Of a stretch of DNA of 44,200 nt, positions 11,112-24,437 are shown one piece after another. Position 1 is the first letter of the stretch; each line of letters starts with the position of its first letter. Made by a program: the position numbers and the translations under genes. The notes below the pieces were generated by a model, which had not been told where the DNA came from, did not search any database, and was given only the letters and a program-made list of their open reading frames with translations. This DNA comes from SAR86 cluster bacterium SAR86A (GTDB lineage Bacteria > Pseudomonadota > Gammaproteobacteria > Magnimaribacterales > D2472): positions 664,909 to 709,108 of the forward strand of contig JH611156.1 in the NCBI GenBank assembly GCA_000252525.1, written 5' to 3'.

Positions 11112-11852
11112 TTACTGTTTTAGTGGATATGCAGCATAGGTTTCTGAATCTTGACATGAAGCATGTTTTCTTACTTCAGCCCACTCATCACTGTTCCTAA
11201 TTTCAGACCACCAAAGATCAATGTTTTTCCCTCTTGCAGCCTCGCTTGGAGCAGAAGTTGAAAACCAAAAATCAACATCCTGTTCCCTGTCTGTCCCACT
11301 ATTTGTCATTATGTATCTATATCCGCCCTCAGCACCAGCAGCATAATGTTTTAAAGCAGCTTGTCTTCTGGCTTCTCGCATAGCTCTTCTATCAAAACCA
11401 CGTGTGTATTTACACGGCCAATAATTAACTATTGTTCTGCCCTGAGGGGCAGCATCCGATGAGGATGGACCAACTCTTTGAAAAGCTTCAAGTTCGACAT
11501 CACAATCCATTGGAGGCATTGCATTGTCCTCAGACTGTGCAAAAATTTGAAACATTTTGTCATTAAATGCTCCCATTTCTTCCCTAGAATCTGCATGAGC
11601 TACAAAAAAGAAATCATGGTCAGGATCAGATGCATACAACGGAAATAAAACTGCAAGATCAACTTCATTTTCAAATGAGTTTGCATTTTCAACATACTTA
11701 CCAACGAATGGCCTAACATCATCAAAAGTAGCGCCATCATTTAACTTACAAAAAGTATAGTTTGCATAAACACTTGTATATCCCTCAAGTTCTGGTTCTT
11801 GAGCCATTGTTGCGAAACTTACAGTAATTAAAAAAGTAATTATATATTTCAT
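11112..11852 (-). CDS. Exported protein of two tandem cysteine-pair units, unknown function
   Basis: 246 residues with a signal peptide ending near ATMA. I do not recognise a named family. The mature part divides into two similar units: residues about 28-120 beginning YANYTFCK and about 140-235 beginning VNYWPCKY. Each has one cysteine near its start and one about 80-86 residues later (C35-C117, C147-C233), and each has a central strand-like segment followed by Ser-x-Glu (HDFFFVAHADSREE; VDFWFSTSAPSEAA). The pattern suggests a duplicated ferredoxin-like (dimeric alpha/beta barrel) fold with one disulfide per unit. The lipoprotein at 22280 has the same layout. AAAGGA lies before the ATG. The gene is 12 bases downstream of the 141-residue exported protein, so they form an operon ending at the terminator at 11071. 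Confidence 0.8.
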   Translation of the reverse strand: MKYIITFLITVSFATMAQEPELEGYTSVYANYTFCKLNDGATFDDVRPFVGKYVENANSFENEVDLAVLFPLYASDPDHDFFFVAHADSREEMGAFNDKMFQIFAQSEDNAMPPMDCDVELEAFQRVGPSSSDAAPQGRTIVNYWPCKYTRGFDRRAMREARRQAALKHYAAGAEGGYRYIMTNSGTDREQDVDFWFSTSAPSEAARGKNIDLWWSEIRNSDEWAEVRKHASCQDSETYAAYPLKQ

Positions 11853-11864
11853 TATTCGTATCCT

Positions 11865-12290
11865 TTATTTAAAAACTAATCTTCCAATAAGCTCAACACT
11901 TACAATTTCACGAATATCTTCGTAGCTTTGAGAAAGTTCCACATTATCCTCTTGAGAAATTGTTTTTCTAAACTTCTCTTGAAATTCTGCGGTTTGTTCT
12001 TCACTCCATGGTGCTTTATTGGCCCATGATGGATATGCAGTAGTTAGATATACAGTAGAACCATCATTACCAATGTAAACGTTATAGTCTGAAATAATTC
12101 CCATCTCTTTTTGAATTTTTGCCGCAGCTACCCATGTTTTTTCAATACCATCTAAATAGTCTTGAAGGAAATTAGTTTTCACCTTTACAGTTGTGAGTTC
12201 AATAACTCCATCTGCGAATTCTCTAGAACTTTCTTCTTGAGCATATGCTGTAAAAGAAAGCATAAGAGTTGCAATTAATAAAAATCTCAT
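11865..12290 (-). CDS. Small exported protein, possible single alpha/beta-barrel-like unit
   Basis: 141 residues; a clear signal peptide ends at AYAQ. The mature protein starts with a strand-like segment (VIELTTVKVKTNFL), a long helix (YLDGIEKTWVAAAKIQKEMG), then strands (DYNVYIGNDGSTVYLTTAYPSW) and a second charged helix, consistent with a dimeric alpha/beta-barrel (ABM-like) fold. No cysteines occur in the mature part. It is the first gene of a two-gene unit with the 246-residue protein. No enzyme motif is recognised, so the function is unknown. Confidence refers to it being a real exported protein. Confidence 0.75.
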   Translation of the reverse strand: MRFLLIATLMLSFTAYAQEESSREFADGVIELTTVKVKTNFLQDYLDGIEKTWVAAAKIQKEMGIISDYNVYIGNDGSTVYLTTAYPSWANKAPWSEEQTAEFQEKFRKTISQEDNVELSQSYEDIREIVSVELIGRLVFK

Positions 12291-17307: not shown

Positions 17308-19788
17308 ATGAATAGTTTTAATAATATTAGGTCATATATTGCAAACTTCATTACCTTATCTGTATTAATTTTCAGTTTCGGATTGAATGCTTATCCAGAG
17401 ATGATGCCTGAAAATGAAAATGAAGTTGAAGAAAATGCCTCAGAACAACCAAAAATGCCCAAAGGGCCAATGTCAAAAAAGAAAGAGTATAAAACTATAG
17501 ATGAGTTTCTTGAAGACGGAGAATACAAATCTATAGATGGCTTCATGAATATATTGCATGAAACAGAAAAAGATAAATATTTTATGATATTGAATGACGA
17601 TCAACTCAATAAAGAATTCATTTACTTTACTTACATTCTAAACGGTCCTTCAGATGCTGGTCCAAGTGGAGGAGATATGGGTGAAGCATTTATTCTTGAG
17701 TTCAGGAAATTTAAGGAAGATATCGGTATATACAAAAAAAATACAAAGTTCGCATTTGATGATTCAAACAAAATATCTCAATCAAAATTGACGAATATTA
17801 TTGAGGCATTTTTAGGAAGATTCTCTGTCATAGTTAAAGAAGATTCCAGATACGTAATTAACATAGATAAGATGTTTCTGAGTGAAATGTTAGTTGCTAT
17901 TACGCCTAATATTCCAAAAGAATACATGGAATATTATAATCTGATACTTGGTAGGCCTGATTCGTCAAAAACATTCATTGATGAAGTAAGAAGCTACGAA
18001 AAAAATACTTCATTTAAAGTTAGGTATGGTTTTTACAATCCTAAACCAAAGTCTGGTAGATCAATTGATGCTATAACAGATAAAAGATATACATTTGTAG
18101 ATGGATTGCATTTATTTGTAGAGATGCCTGACGATAAGTTTGAGCCTAGAATTGCTGATCAAAGAATTGGATATTTTTCTGAAAAAGTTACAGATCTTTC
18201 AACCTACGATTCCAATAACGCTAGGGACCTTATAAATAGATGGAGATTAGTCAAAAAAGATCCTGATGCAGAGTTATCTGAGCCTGAACAGCCTTTAGTA
18301 TATTGGGTTGAAAATTCAACACCAGAAGAAATACGTCCGTTTGTTGTAAAAGGTATCGAAGCATGGAATAAAGCTTTTGAAAAAGCAGGTTTTAAGAATG
18401 CAATTGTTGCAAAAATTCAACCTGACGATGCCGAATGGGATGCAGGCGACGTAAGATATAACGTTGTAAGATGGGCTTCAACACCCTCACCTAGATATTC
18501 TGGATATGGCCCTAGTGTGGCAAATCCAAGGACTGGTGAAATTATAGCTGCAGATATTGTTCAAGAATTCAATGCGATTAAAAGGGGTTATACATACAGA
18601 AAATTGTGGGGATATACTGAAGAAAATGATCCTCTTGAGCAATGGATAGTATCACTAACAATGCATGAGGTTGGTCATACTTTAGGCTTAAGACATAACT
18701 TTAAATCAAGTTGGGTTTATGATGCTAAAGAAGTGCATGATGTATCTATTACTGGCGATAATCATATTGGCTCTGTAATGGACTATGACCCAATTAATTT
18801 AGCACCAGAAGGAATACCACAGGGTAATTTCTTTCCAACTGGTCCAGGATTTTATGATATCTGGGCAATTGAATTCGGTTATACCCCAAGCTTCACTGAT
18901 GAGGAACGTGAAAACCTTCTTTCAAAATCGACTCAGCCAGAATATATATTTGGAACTGATGGAGATGCAATGTCATCGCCAGGTGTAAATATTGATCCAA
19001 GAAACTACAGAGGTGATATGTCTAATGACCCTATTACATATACCTCTGACAGAATAAAAACTTTAAATGCAAAAATTGCTGAACTTCCAGAAATTTTTCT
19101 TACTGATGGAGAAACTTCTACAGAGTTCAGATCAAATTTTTATAGGCTTACAACTGAAAAAGGAAGGTTCCTTGATGGAGTTTCAAGGTTAATTGGTGGA
19201 GTTTACTCTAATAGAATTGTTAATGATCCAGACATCGACATGACTCCATTTGAAGCGGTTCCTTATGAAGATCAAAAAAGGGCCATGAGTTTAATTAAAG
19301 AACAGCTTTTATCAAATGATGCCTTCTCGTTTGATGAAAAATTACTTAAATATCTTCAAAGTGAAAAACGAGCTGCATATAGTCCTAGAAGAGGTGGAAA
19401 TGAAGATCCACAGCTGCATGATTTAGTTCTTGGCCTTCAAGGAAGAGCAATTGCACACATACTCCATCCAGTAGTAATGAAGAGACTAGTCGACAGTTCA
19501 CAATATGGTAACACTTATATGCCAGATGAAGTTCTATCTGACCTTTTCAGTGCTATCTTTGTTCAAAGAGAAATGCCAACTACATTTAAAATGAACCTAC
19601 AATCAAAATATGTTGATAGTCTAATAAGTGCATTAGATGATGACAGCTATGATGAAATATCTAAGTCTGCGATTTATGCATCTTTAGTTGATATAAAGGA
19701 TTTTACTAGGATTCCATATGGCGACTCCAAGACTAAAGTTCACTATAGATTTTTAAATTGGAAAGCAACAAAAGCTTTAGAAAATTAG
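17308..19788 (+). CDS. Secreted zinc metalloprotease, DUF5117/DUF4953 type
   Basis: 826 residues with an N-terminal signal sequence (hydrophobic about 10-30, ending near LNAYP) and an acidic/Met-Pro-rich linker. The zinc site HEVGHTLGLRH (His453, Glu454, His457, His463), followed by a Met-turn-like SVMDY, places it with the metzincin-like zinc-dependent proteases whose flanking regions are called DUF5117 and DUF4953. Such proteins are periplasmic or secreted, common in Bacteroidota and marine gammaproteobacteria, and of unknown physiological substrate. AAAGGA lies about 10 bases before the ATG. Its end overlaps the convergent MGMT-like gene by four bases. Confidence 0.9.
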   Translation: MNSFNNIRSYIANFITLSVLIFSFGLNAYPEMMPENENEVEENASEQPKMPKGPMSKKKEYKTIDEFLEDGEYKSIDGFMNILHETEKDKYFMILNDDQLNKEFIYFTYILNGPSDAGPSGGDMGEAFILEFRKFKEDIGIYKKNTKFAFDDSNKISQSKLTNIIEAFLGRFSVIVKEDSRYVINIDKMFLSEMLVAITPNIPKEYMEYYNLILGRPDSSKTFIDEVRSYEKNTSFKVRYGFYNPKPKSGRSIDAITDKRYTFVDGLHLFVEMPDDKFEPRIADQRIGYFSEKVTDLSTYDSNNARDLINRWRLVKKDPDAELSEPEQPLVYWVENSTPEEIRPFVVKGIEAWNKAFEKAGFKNAIVAKIQPDDAEWDAGDVRYNVVRWASTPSPRYSGYGPSVANPRTGEIIAADIVQEFNAIKRGYTYRKLWGYTEENDPLEQWIVSLTMHEVGHTLGLRHNFKSSWVYDAKEVHDVSITGDNHIGSVMDYDPINLAPEGIPQGNFFPTGPGFYDIWAIEFGYTPSFTDEERENLLSKSTQPEYIFGTDGDAMSSPGVNIDPRNYRGDMSNDPITYTSDRIKTLNAKIAELPEIFLTDGETSTEFRSNFYRLTTEKGRFLDGVSRLIGGVYSNRIVNDPDIDMTPFEAVPYEDQKRAMSLIKEQLLSNDAFSFDEKLLKYLQSEKRAAYSPRRGGNEDPQLHDLVLGLQGRAIAHILHPVVMKRLVDSSQYGNTYMPDEVLSDLFSAIFVQREMPTTFKMNLQSKYVDSLISALDDDSYDEISKSAIYASLVDIKDFTRIPYGDSKTKVHYRFLNWKATKALEN

Positions 19789-21345: not shown

Positions 21346-22242
21346 ATGTCTAAACAATCAACTTCACATTTATTTATGATTGAGCCTGAATCTTTTTATT
21401 CAAATGAACAAACTTCATATACCAATCACTATCAAGAAGATGCTTCAAATGAAGATATAGCAGATATAACAAAAAAAGCACTTGTTGAATTTCATAACTT
21501 AAAAGACAAAATTGAAGCCAAAGGAATTCAGGTAACAAGCTTAAAAGGCTCAAAAGAATGTCCCGATCACATATTTCCAAATTGGTTTATGACATTCGAT
21601 AACAAAACAATGCAGATTTTTAGCATGTTGGCTCCAAACAGAAGAAAGGAAAAGAAATTATCAATGATTGAACATTTATCTGAAACATATGAATTGACTG
21701 CAGACTTTTCATATCTTGAAAACAAAGAAATATTTCTTGAGTCAACAAGCAGTATGGTTTTTGACAGAGTTAATAGGATTGTCTATGCAGGAATATCACC
21801 AAGAACAAATGCTGTTCAATTAATTATATGGTGTAGAAACAATGATTTTGAACTAGTGTTATTTGAAACAGAAAGTCATACTGGCTCGCCTATATATCAT
21901 ACTGATGTATTAATGTACGTTGGAACAGATATCATTGGCATATGTTTTGATGTAATCAAAGAGGAGCATGTAGATTACGTTAGAGAAAAAGTAAATGCTC
22001 ATCATGATGTTGTTGAGCTTACTTCTGAGCAAATTCAAAACTTTTCAGGTAACGCGATTGAAGCAAAAAATGAAGCAGGAGAACTTTTCTTGATTATTTC
22101 ATCCAGAGGATTCAATGCATTGAATGATGATCAGGTAAATAAGCTTTTAAAAAGTTACAAAGAAATTATCCATTCAGATATTCCTACCATTGAAAAATAT
22201 GGTGGAGGATCTGCTCGATGTATGTTAACTGAACTATTTTAA
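21346..22242 (+). CDS. ctlX: Citrulline hydrolase/arginine deiminase-like protein (CtlX family)
   Basis: 298 residues of the guanidino-group-modifying amidinotransferase/deiminase superfamily, CtlX branch (COG4874). Family signs are FPNWFMTFDN, SMVFDRVNRIVYAGISPRT, catalytic His185 in IYHTDVLMYVG and catalytic Cys292 in GGGSARCMLTE close to the C-terminus. The Francisella member hydrolyses citrulline to ornithine, CO2 and ammonia. Placement beside rocD supports a route citrulline to ornithine to glutamate semialdehyde; the exact substrate here is inferred. AAGGA lies about seven bases before the ATG. Confidence 0.85.
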   Translation: MSKQSTSHLFMIEPESFYSNEQTSYTNHYQEDASNEDIADITKKALVEFHNLKDKIEAKGIQVTSLKGSKECPDHIFPNWFMTFDNKTMQIFSMLAPNRRKEKKLSMIEHLSETYELTADFSYLENKEIFLESTSSMVFDRVNRIVYAGISPRTNAVQLIIWCRNNDFELVLFETESHTGSPIYHTDVLMYVGTDIIGICFDVIKEEHVDYVREKVNAHHDVVELTSEQIQNFSGNAIEAKNEAGELFLIISSRGFNALNDDQVNKLLKSYKEIIHSDIPTIEKYGGGSARCMLTELF

Positions 22243-22279: not shown

Positions 22280-23065
22280 TTAGGTGCTTGGATTATTGTA
22301 AAGCTCATAGCTATCATAATAATCAGGAGAAATACATGTAGATATCTCATCAAATTTAGCTTGCATGGCTTTACCATTTTCTTCCCAATCTGCATTACCT
22401 GATTTCATTGAGTCAAAGCTAGCATGCCAATTACCCCATAGAAAATCAGCTTCAGCTCCATCAAACTCTGGAAAATATACGCCAAAGAAATAAGGATTTG
22501 CACTACCATTTTGATCAAGATATTCATTAAATTGAACAACAGCAGCTCTTAAATCTTGTCTTACTTTTCCTTCTTTAAAATTACAAGCAAGAAATTCAGA
22601 TGCAAAGTAACCCTGCTCACCCATTACCTCTCCAAATGATGCAGGATCTCTAGGTAAGTAGAATGTCCAAGGGAATCTTCCCTCGATATCGCATGTCATT
22701 ACATCAGCGTATTTTTCAGACCATGCAAGAAACTCAGGTGATGGATTGCTAAAAGCATTATCGGAGCTTTCTTTTGAATCCCATTCTAATTCCCACCAAC
22801 CATTTGAAAATCTATGATCTTCTCCAACTGGTGCATATACTCCAGCCCAACCAAGACCTGCAGCAGATGGCAGTTCCTGCCAAGCAGCTAACATTTCTTG
22901 AATCCCATCATCAAATGCTGGACCAGCGTTGCATGCTAAGAATTCATTGTAATAAGGACCTTTATAGATAGGTCCAGTGTCACCTGAGACAGCTGCGTCC
23001 TCTTGTGCACAACTAACAATAAATAAAATTACAAAAGCACTTAATATATATTTATAATTGCTCAT
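22280..23065 (-). CDS. Lipoprotein with two tandem cysteine-pair units, unknown function
   Basis: 261 residues; the lipoprotein signal ends at IVSC with Cys19 lipidated. The mature part is a tandem duplication: unit one (about 38-140) begins YYNEFLACN and unit two (about 153-250) begins YFASEFLACN. Each unit holds a cysteine pair about 80 residues apart (C45-C125 and C161-C244), Trp-rich strands (GWWELEWDSKESSDNA; LWGNWHASFDSMKSGNA) and a Trp/helix segment before the second cysteine. The exported protein at 11112 shares this design. A ferredoxin-like alpha/beta fold repeated twice is a reasonable guess; no enzyme is recognised. Its ATG overlaps the stop codon of the membrane protein upstream (TAATG), so the two are coupled. 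Confidence 0.8.
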   Translation of the reverse strand: MSNYKYILSAFVILFIVSCAQEDAAVSGDTGPIYKGPYYNEFLACNAGPAFDDGIQEMLAAWQELPSAAGLGWAGVYAPVGEDHRFSNGWWELEWDSKESSDNAFSNPSPEFLAWSEKYADVMTCDIEGRFPWTFYLPRDPASFGEVMGEQGYFASEFLACNFKEGKVRQDLRAAVVQFNEYLDQNGSANPYFFGVYFPEFDGAEADFLWGNWHASFDSMKSGNADWEENGKAMQAKFDEISTCISPDYYDSYELYNNPST

Positions 23066-23466
23066 TATGACTTTTTAACCCAAATTTGAGTCATTTGCAT
23101 TACAACAATTGAGCCTAAAAATACCCATTGAACTATTCCTAGCTTGCCGTCAGCCATAGCGACAAAGTTTTCAGCATTTGACGAAATATCTTGCACTTCT
23201 GATAATGCACTAAATGCATTTGCATATCCAAAGGCTATATTTTGGCCTTGAGCCATAGTAACTAGAGTAAAGACAGCTATTGATAAGCAAAAAAGAGTTG
23301 TAAAGATTTTGCCAAGTAAATTAACATCACCATCGTAATAGATTCTGCTTGTAAATCTAAATCCAACCCAGATTAAAAACGAGCAAGCTGCAAAGAAAAT
23401 TGCATTACTTATGAAAGCAGTATTCATTCCATTCCAGATTGCCATCTCATTCATAAATTGATCCAT
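23065..23466 (-). CDS. Small three-helix membrane protein, unknown function
   Basis: 133 residues with three hydrophobic helices: about 16-36 (ISNAIFFAACSFLIWVGF), about 50-70 (LGKIFTTLFCLSIAVFTLV) and about 108-128 (GIVQWVFLGSIVVMQMTQI). No family is recognised. A strong ribosome site (AAGGGAG, seven bases before the ATG) supports the start. It overlaps the two-unit lipoprotein by one base, so it probably forms a complex or at least an operon with it. Confidence 0.75.
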   Translation of the reverse strand: MDQFMNEMAIWNGMNTAFISNAIFFAACSFLIWVGFRFTSRIYYDGDVNLLGKIFTTLFCLSIAVFTLVTMAQGQNIAFGYANAFSALSEVQDISSNAENFVAMADGKLGIVQWVFLGSIVVMQMTQIWVKKS

Positions 23467-23585
23467 ATTAATTCTCCCTTATTAATTAAAATGTAATATT
23501 TGATACTACATTAATATTGATCGATATATAAAAAAATTAAGTAAAAAATCTTTACATATTTTTAAGAGGCTAAGAATTCTTAGAA

Positions 23586-24437
23586 TTAAATCTCTTTAAC
23601 AAATTGGCTAACTTGTTTTATACCACCTAGAGGAAAGAAATGAACCTTTTCGATATTAAAATCAGGATTACTTGATTTGTATGCAGCTAGTTCACTAATT
23701 ATTTGAGTCGGTTTATAAGGAAGTAATAATTTTGTAATGTCCTTCGCTCTTTTTTGAAGAATCTTTATTGATGCACCAACACCGCACTCAATAGAATATC
23801 TTAGAAGTGTTTGTAATTTTGCAGGTCCAGCAATACCAATATGAACTGGTATATCTATGCCAGATTTTTGAATACCATTCACCCATTCAATTACAGAATT
23901 AGAATCAAAACAAAATTGAGTAGTAATTGCCATAGATGCATCTGTTCTTTTGCTAAATTCATTTTTCCATGACAATGCTTGGTCAACATTTGCAGTAGTT
24001 CCATCGGGATCAATTTCTTTACTACCCTCAGGGTGACCAGCTATATGTAAGTTTTTAAATCCTGCTTTATCAAATAGCTCAGACTCGATTAATTGAATTG
24101 AAGAATCAAATTCACCATAAGGCTTATTAGCACCACCTGCAATCAAAAGTGCATTTTCAACACCTGCTTCATTTTTGTATCTTCCAATCCAATCTTTAAG
24201 AGTGTCTTTATCTTTGATAATTCTTGCTGGAAAATGAGGCATTGCTTTAAAGCCTTGATCAGTAATTTTTTTTGCCGTTGCTACAGTTTCCTCTATTGGA
24301 GTTCCTTCAATATGTGCAATATAAATTAAAGTCCCAGGCGACAAGTAATCTGAAAAATTATCAATTTTTTTTGCAGCATTAGGCGTAACTTCAATGGAGA
24401 AATCATTCAAAAAACTAACTACTTGTTCATTTGCCAT
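23586..24437 (-). CDS. Methylenetetrahydrofolate reductase-like flavoprotein
   Basis: 283 residues of the MetF TIM-barrel family. It starts with the active-site strand SIEVTP (the Glu matches that of SFEFFPP in E. coli MetF) and has APHF-like MPHFPARI, TTQFCFD (matching ITQFFFD), and a C-terminal HFFPLGGI. Where classical MetF has the flavin-tuning Asp in LRGD, this protein reads LLIAGGANKP, so that Asp is not present. Proteins of this subtype occur in marine alphaproteobacteria near methylated-compound demethylation genes, as far as I recall, so a role in one-carbon oxidation is possible. It starts 21 bases downstream of tRNA-Ser. Confidence 0.82.
   Translation of the reverse strand: MANEQVVSFLNDFSIEVTPNAAKKIDNFSDYLSPGTLIYIAHIEGTPIEETVATAKKITDQGFKAMPHFPARIIKDKDTLKDWIGRYKNEAGVENALLIAGGANKPYGEFDSSIQLIESELFDKAGFKNLHIAGHPEGSKEIDPDGTTANVDQALSWKNEFSKRTDASMAITTQFCFDSNSVIEWVNGIQKSGIDIPVHIGIAGPAKLQTLLRYSIECGVGASIKILQKRAKDITKLLLPYKPTQIISELAAYKSSNPDFNIEKVHFFPLGGIKQVSQFVKEI

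What the first reader, a model, noticed from the sequence alone, without database searches (positions are those of the whole stretch)
22280..23466. Membrane protein coupled to a lipoprotein of the same two-unit family
The lipoprotein contains two copies starting FLACN, each with a cysteine 80-83 residues downstream and Trp-rich strands. Its start overlaps the stop of a 133-residue three-helix membrane protein, so they probably act together. Nothing in either suggests a known pathway; this is the best candidate in the window for an undescribed two-component envelope system.
Basis: partly seen in the sequence, partly recalled or inferred. Interest (0 to 1): 0.6.

Follow-up and report, generated by a model that had tools for sequence, protein, structure and literature searches.

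The report
SAR86 swappable membrane-protein gene slot
An abundant, barely cultured ocean bacterium keeps one small membrane-protein gene in a fixed chromosomal slot where very different versions of it are swapped between relatives, next to a two-lobed lipoprotein that is an optional neighbour.

Summary
The window is from SAR86. The lipoprotein (LP) has two homologous units, each predicted as a ferredoxin-like fold, and its start overlaps the stop of a three-helix membrane protein (MP) by one base. Neither belongs to any family in the libraries searched.

The reading as a dedicated two-component system is only partly supported. In the window's genus all 11 LP loci have an MP directly upstream, but 17 of 28 MP loci lack the LP, and 6 of 6 testable LP orthologues in sister genera lack the MP.

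The stronger finding is the MP slot itself. Between an MTHFR-like gene and (LP)-CtlX it holds one of three ancient MP types (about 30% identical). Neighbours can be 90-98% identical while the MP differs completely, and MPs can be near-identical at silent sites while neighbours are not (27 of 125 same-type pairs; controls 0 of 374 and 1 of 55). A second slot in another SAR86 family holds arrays of 2-3 diverged MPs and varies in the same way.

I read the MP as a SAR86-restricted inner-membrane protein kept polymorphic by homologous recombination and selection, perhaps for phage or toxin recognition (inferred). The LP is an occasional co-transcribed passenger.

The parts
22280..23065 (-). LP: lipoprotein with two ferredoxin-like units (261 aa)
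22646..22966 (-). LP unit 1 (residues 34-140), Cys45 and Cys125, W90 W91 E92 W95
22289..22618 (-). LP unit 2 (residues 150-259), Cys161 and Cys244, W210 N212
23065..23466 (-). MP: three-helix membrane protein of a SAR86-restricted family, type A allele; inferred N-out/C-in; K53 in 50 of 50 and W33, R37, W129 in 49 of 50 family clusters
23467..23585 (-). intergenic stretch upstream of MP; about the last 100 bases diverge together with MP between types, so the exchanged unit is roughly MP plus this leader
23586..24437 (-). upstream flank of the slot: MTHFR-like protein (283 aa), conserved while MP changes
21346..22242 (+). downstream flank of the slot: CtlX/DDAH-like hydrolase, convergent with LP
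11112..11852 (-). exported remote relative of LP, no MP beside it

Best explanation
SHOWN: The MP gene occupies a fixed slot between an MTHFR-like gene and CtlX. In this genus the slot is nearly always filled (28 of 29), by one of three anciently diverged types of one SAR86-restricted membrane-protein family. Types and alleles are exchanged between lineages by recombination of roughly 0.4-1.3 kb, independently of the flanks and of LP. The LP is present in 11 of 29 slots, stays conserved across MP swaps, and is predicted as an outer-membrane-type lipoprotein carrying a tandem alpha+beta-barrel domain. INFERRED: MP spans the inner membrane three times (N-out, C-in), with a conserved cytoplasmic-side core (W33, R37, K53, W129) and an acidic, more variable extracytoplasmic segment (75-110). 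The alleles are kept by diversifying or negative frequency-dependent selection, most plausibly because the periplasmic face is a recognition site for phages or diffusible toxins, or gives immunity to them. LP is a co-transcribed periplasmic ligand-binding partner of convenience, not an obligate second component.
For: Slot survey: 31 CtlX places, 29 with room; MP in 28, LP in 11, types A 6, B 11, C 11. G100(A) and G116(B): flanks 90 and 93%, LP 91%, MP 34%. G121(C) and G108(B): CtlX 98%, MP 28%. Reverse case L006 and L013 (both B): four-fold sites identical 34/79, 37/79 and 32/69 in the neighbours but 47/56 in MP. 27 of 125 same-type pairs show MP silent identity more than 25 points above CtlX and 1 of 125 the opposite; controls are aminotransferase 0 higher and 1 lower of 374, LP 1 higher of 55. 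Identity falls and recovers at the MP leader and the MP stop. Twelve neighbouring genes of 14 loci: one pair below 50% in all, against 59 of 91 MP pairs. Ten changes of type on the CtlX tree of 28 loci (shuffled mean 13.1). In SAR86 family f2 the same happens with arrays: dehydrogenase 96-98%, SCO1 78-91%, most MPs 25-50% in those pairs. MP matches only SAR86 among 370 class genomes (5 of 370, all in the order). Topology and variability by region. LP fold.
Against: No phenotype, toxin, phage or receptor is tied to MP. No T6SS sheath gene in 40 SAR86 genomes, no PHROG or convincing PADLOC match, no MP relative found in viral contigs with one close-range query. Within a type MP does not evolve unusually fast: window and L081 MP 80%, LP 85%, so the diversity is between types. 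Extracytoplasmic entropy is only slightly above the rest (2.62 against 2.15-2.42 bits, and the four C-terminal residues are higher at 2.74). In the DUF1295 slot MPs are less diverged, 61-67% in the pairs that differ. Local adaptation could also keep several types.
Confidence: 0.55

Rival explanations
1. LP and MP are a dedicated two-component envelope system: MP anchors or energises, LP binds ligand, and the two need each other.
For: TAATG coupling, 4-base overlaps or 2-base gaps in relatives, 11 of 11 LP loci in the genus with MP. A second independent case in SAR86 family f3, where an MP is followed by an LP-family protein after 1 base (L147). MP also neighbours two other secreted ~225-245-aa families, T243 (7 pairs, 0.17 expected) and T225 (2 pairs, 0.10 expected).
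Against: MP alone in 17 of 28 slots; LP alone in 6 of 6 sister-genus loci; MP swapped for a ~34% identical type beside an unchanged LP; the LP tree ignores MP type. T243 and T225 were picked because they were seen beside MP, and no sequence kinship to LP was found.
Confidence: 0.15
2. The MP types are niche adaptations (salinity, temperature, lipid or ion handling) kept by local selection, not by phage or toxin pressure.
For: Types show weak clustering on the CtlX tree (10 changes, 9 of 300 shuffles as low). All types share a nearly invariant core W33/R37/K53/W129, as for a conserved transport-like function. The f2 arrays sit beside UbiA-type and SCO1 genes, which I take (recalled) as respiratory-chain assembly genes.
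Against: Very close relatives carry different types (CtlX 97-98%), and f2 genomes carry 2-3 diverged types at once, which fits recognition or immunity better than one optimum per niche.
Confidence: 0.25
3. No exchange: an ancestral tandem array of A, B and C was sorted by differential loss.
For: Tandem MPs exist elsewhere (f2, f3, L059); A, B and C are old lineages.
Against: Silent-site identity of MP far above that of its neighbours in 27 of 125 same-type pairs, with near-zero controls, requires recent transfer. No tandem array was seen at this slot in 28 loci.
Confidence: 0.05
4. Assembly or binning artefact.
For: Many genomes are MAGs; one MAG (G097) holds two copies of the locus.
Against: CtlX and MP lie on a single contig in 28 loci. 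Several records bear AG- numbers, which I recall as single-cell genomes. The breaks fall at the same gene boundary in several pairs and recur in f2.
Confidence: 0.03

Closest known systems
Dimeric alpha+beta-barrel (tandem ferredoxin-like) proteins: PDB 2pgc (marine metagenome protein), sulfur oxygenase reductase, putative monooxygenases 3mcs/3f44, chlorite dismutase and DyP
   Same: Tandem fold of LP: 2pgc Z 17.0, rmsd 2.9, 196 aligned; 6qpa Z 16.6, rmsd 3.8, 219 aligned; 4m09 Z 10.3, rmsd 4.5, 193 aligned.
   Different: 4-11% sequence identity, no profile match to any PDB chain below E 0.56 and no Pfam match. LP is a lipoprotein with a cysteine pair per unit. No cofactor was shown.
Orphan immunity-gene arrays at fixed loci, e.g. 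Vibrio cholerae T6SS (PMC5361080, abstract and opening read)
   Same: Small genes side by side at a fixed locus, spread by homologous recombination, varying between near relatives.
   Different: No T6SS sheath gene in 40 SAR86 genomes. No toxin gene recognised beside the MPs. The window's slot nearly always holds exactly one allele.
Metagenomic or hypervariable islands of marine bacteria under phage pressure (PMC3909814 and PMC3782348, seen in search listing only; SAR86 hypervariable region, PMC3569297, one passage read)
   Same: Variable gene content in an abundant marine bacterium.
   Different: Here a single ~0.4-kb gene is replaced by a distant homologue, not a multi-gene cell-surface island.

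Membership tests
Tandem ferredoxin-like / dimeric alpha+beta-barrel fold (LP) | two strand-helix-strand-strand-helix-strand units forming one barrel-like pair | tested here: met
   AlphaFold2 secondary structure; Foldseek 114 chains at E <= 0.001; VIA Z 17.0 to 2pgc over residues 37-253
Chlorite dismutase / DyP / SOR enzyme families (LP) | sequence match to a curated family model | tested here: not met
   no Pfam match at E <= 0.01 for any of 26 members; no NCBIfam match for LP at E <= 1
Chlorite dismutase / DyP / SOR enzyme families (LP) | bound heme or iron and catalysis | not testable with these tools
   no coordinates at hand, no biochemistry
Bacterial lipoprotein (LP) | signal peptide with lipobox cysteine | tested here: met
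   IVSC at Cys19; the cysteine is conserved in 20 of 21 LP-proper rows at the aligned position. Sorting to the outer membrane is inferred from residue +2 = Ala (recalled Lol rule)
T6SS orphan immunity arrays (MP) | the clade carries a T6SS | tested here: not met
   VipB PF05943 in 0 of 40 SAR86 genomes; control E. coli positive
T6SS orphan immunity arrays (MP) | cognate effector gene beside immunity gene | tested here: inconclusive
   neighbours of 46 MP regions listed (part of the first listing was cut and repeated); none recognised by eye as a toxin, but many are unannotated
Integron or site-specific cassette system (MP slot) | repeats or recombination sites bounding the cassette | tested here: not met
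   no direct repeat of 14 or more bases across the window slot; in one f2 array the repeats found lie in or at the start of the MP genes
Anti-phage defence families (MP) | match to a PADLOC model | tested here: not met
   1 of 22 members at E 0.0099 only
Dedicated two-component LP-MP system | mutual presence | tested here: not met
   MP without LP 17 of 28; LP without MP 6 of 6 in sister genera

The most novel reading that the evidence does not exclude
SAR86 carries a lineage-specific recognition polymorphism. A family of three-helix inner-membrane proteins sits at several fixed chromosomal slots, and whole genes (or short arrays) are exchanged as alleles by homologous recombination under negative frequency-dependent selection from phages or diffusible toxins. 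Secreted two-unit alpha+beta-barrel proteins (LP, and possibly T243 and T225) serve as exchangeable periplasmic partners. It would be an allelic self/target-recognition locus in one of the ocean's most abundant bacterial groups.
Probability: 0.3. Interest if true: 0.85.

Novelty: new variant of a known kind. Interest (0 to 1): 0.62.

Why it matters
SAR86 is among the most abundant bacteria of the surface ocean and its first cultured isolate was reported only in 2024 (PMC11582366, abstract start and one passage seen). A single-gene slot with deeply diverged, exchanged alleles gives a marker whose frequency can be followed in existing metagenomes and tested against phage abundance. It points to what selects on SAR86 cells. 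It also names an unannotated protein family whose nearly invariant core (W33, R37, K53, W129) makes a definite target for structure and function work.

Tried and rejected
Family libraries (Pfam, NCBIfam, PADLOC, PHROGs) gave nothing usable for MP; the scattered NCBIfam and PADLOC matches (STEVOR, ABZJ_00895, an antiporter, PDC-S70) are weak (E about 0.001-0.01) and I take them as chance from membrane composition. The PDB profile match of MP to a 'circular tendon repeat protein' (E 0.00016) and the helical-bundle fold matches (Z up to 10) are not evidence of kinship; the tool itself warns about helical bundles.

T243 and T225 (secreted, ~225-245 aa): I tested whether they are LP relatives. Profile comparison gives probability about 25 or less. 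T243 is internally duplicated on its own account (probability 83.5); T225 is inconclusive with 4 sequences. They are left as neighbours only. T225-T243-LP clusters exist in f2, but the families were chosen after being seen beside MP or LP, so those statistics are post hoc.

The adjacency statistics treat genomes as independent and placement as uniform. My merging of fragments also fused some tandem MPs (68 rows became 61), so MP-MP counts are too low; the MP-LP, MP-T243 and MP-T225 pairs are listed gene by gene and none is in a fused locus.

The CtlX tree stands in for a species tree and CtlX itself may recombine. Differential loss of a tandem array was considered and rejected. A promoter/terminator scan was uninformative. 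A search for MP in viral contigs with the single protein found none, which reaches only close relatives.

Not in print: none of the searches listed a paper on these proteins or on this slot; only open-licence PMC papers were searched.

Full report
WHAT IS THERE. The window lies in a 1.25-Mb genome whose nearest named records are SAR86. LP is a 261-aa lipoprotein; MP is a 133-aa membrane protein ending where LP starts (TAATG). LP units 1 and 2 are homologous (probability 94.6, E 7e-8; best of 50 shuffled controls 6.8), and each is modelled as a ferredoxin-like unit (pLDDT 86.7). Best solved matches are 2pgc, a marine metagenome protein (Z 17.0, rmsd 2.9, 196 aligned), then sulfur oxygenase reductases (Z 15.6-16.6) and putative monooxygenases (Foldseek). 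In 21 LP-proper sequences the four unit cysteines, W91, E92, W95, Y197, W210 and N212 are invariant. No Pfam family matches any of 26 members.

MP. The model is helical with pLDDT 92.8. Over 50 clusters at 70% identity (from 103 distinct sequences), K53 is invariant and W33, R37 and W129 are conserved in 49 of 50. Lys+Arg averages 2.56 in loop 37-53 and 1.12 in the four C-terminal residues, against 0.06 in the N-terminus; segment 75-110 averages 4.76 acidic residues and has the highest entropy of the longer regions, 2.62 bits. By the positive-inside rule (recalled) this gives N-out, C-in. MP matched 5 of 370 genomes drawn from the class, all of them SAR86, and 139 of 203 genomes of the order with the single sequence. 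The LP profile matched 6 of 370, one outside the order (G350), and a SAR92 contig carries two relatives.

ARE THEY A PAIR? One search showed an MP-family gene directly upstream of the LPs of the window's genus that have enough flank, but of differing types. One search searched CtlX, the far flank, in all 34 held genomes of the genus: 30 have it, at 31 places. Two places end at a contig edge, leaving 29. MP is in 28 (in G098 the MTHFR-like gene directly follows CtlX; one of the 28, G105, is cut at the contig end), LP in 11, and all 11 have MP. LP is found with types A (4 of 6), B (6 of 11) and C (1 of 11); A+B against C, Fisher p 0.016, not corrected for kinship. In sister genera the orthologous LP (55-62% identical) sits in the same synteny where that was read (L016, L079, L080) without MP: 7 genomes, one cut at the contig edge, so 0 of 6 with MP. 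Across 40 genomes at least 90% complete, 4 MP-LP neighbour pairs were found (0.33 expected) at two unrelated loci. So coupling is real within the genus, and a second case exists in f3 (L147), but neither gene needs the other.

THE SLOT. Comparing loci pairwise: G100(A) and G116(B) have MTHFR-like 90%, CtlX 93%, LP 91%, MP 34%; G119(A) and G120(B) 83, 87 and 31% (MTHFR-like, CtlX, MP); G114(C) and G108(B) 87, 87 and 32%. Conversely L006 and L013, both B: MTHFR-like 74%, LP 74%, MP 94%. Four-fold sites identical in that pair are 34/79, 37/79 and 32/69 for MTHFR-like, CtlX and LP, and 47/56 for MP. Over 28 loci, 22 pairs have CtlX at least 85% identical but different MP types. Of 125 same-type pairs, MP silent identity exceeds that of CtlX by more than 25 points in 27 and falls short in 1; for the aminotransferase beyond CtlX it exceeds in 0 and falls short in 1 of 374, and for LP it exceeds in 1 of 55. 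G109, G120 and G122 have identical four-fold sites in MP (58/58 in all three pairs) while their CtlX genes differ (G109-G120 51/84, G109-G122 35/78, G120-G122 26/83). Identity profiles drop about 100 bases upstream of the MP start and recover around the MP stop; in L154/L155 the stretch of high identity also spans the MTHFR-like gene. In 14 regions with longer flanks, 12 neighbouring genes gave one pair below 50% (a rapidly diverging 826-aa Met-zincin-family protein, 49%), against 59 of 91 MP pairs (not every neighbour was present in all 14 regions). Type needs 10 changes on the CtlX tree (300 shuffles: mean 13.1, 9 as low); LP presence needs 5 (shuffled mean 8.9, 1 as low).

ELSEWHERE IN SAR86. 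MP genes lie in about nine kinds of location (my grouping; tree with location labels). In family f2, between SCO1/UbiA-type genes and a zinc-type dehydrogenase, 2-3 MPs stand in a row. With dehydrogenase 96-98% identical, most MPs are only 25-50% identical between genomes, though some are shared (57-58, 86 and 99% in some pairs). At the DUF1295 slot the effect is milder: DUF1295 90-93% with MP 67% in two pairs, other close pairs agree.

MECHANISM. Shown: recurrent replacement of MP alleles at a fixed slot by recombination, conserved MP core, LP indifferent to MP type. Inferred: three-pass topology, selection for diversity, recognition by or protection from phages or toxins. Phage or toxin involvement is not shown: there is no T6SS sheath gene (0 of 40), no convincing defence-library match and no viral relative with one narrow query. 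LP may bind a small ligand in its barrel; there is no cofactor evidence.

COMPARISON WITH THE KNOWN. It works somewhat like immunity-gene arrays spread by homologous recombination (V. cholerae, PMC5361080, abstract and opening), but fails the defining T6SS feature. It resembles phage-driven variable islands of marine bacteria (listing only: PMC3782348, PMC3909814) and the SAR86 hypervariable region of outer-membrane-modification genes (PMC3569297, one passage), but at the scale of one gene. The SAR86 isolate paper (PMC11582366) has no occurrence of 'membrane protein', 'lipoprotein' or 'phage' in its main text.

VERDICT. The finding is real, and its most interesting part is not the pairing but the swappable membrane-protein slot.

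Noticed in passing
window 17308-19788: 826-aa exported Met-zincin-family protein (DUF4953/DUF5117) diverges to about 50% between relatives whose other genes are about 70-82% identical (medians).
   Followed up: partly
L159, L162, L166, L168, L174, L181 (SAR86 family f2): Arrays of 2-3 diverged MPs beside UbiA-type and SCO1 genes, with very different content between near-identical flanks.
   Followed up: partly
G015:C2:59257-63653, G009:C1:81063-83945 and others: Clusters of secreted ~230-260-aa proteins of three families (LP family, T243, T225) side by side; T243-T225 neighbours in 11 of 40 genomes (0.12 pairs expected at random).
   Followed up: partly
L011 (PAHL01000001.1): Contig labelled a Flavobacteriaceae MAG carries the SAR86 locus; its LP and CtlX group with a SAR86 record, so probably mis-binned.
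   Followed up: no
L005 and L007 (one MAG, PAJW01, G097): Two very similar copies of the whole locus on two contigs, probably two strains in one bin.
   Followed up: no
L018:4856-6759: A SAR92 contig carries an LP relative (37% identical) divergently next to a second member of the family.
   Followed up: no
window 11865-12290: 141-aa exported protein just upstream of the 11112 relative on the same strand; weak EXLDI match below its cut-off.
   Followed up: no
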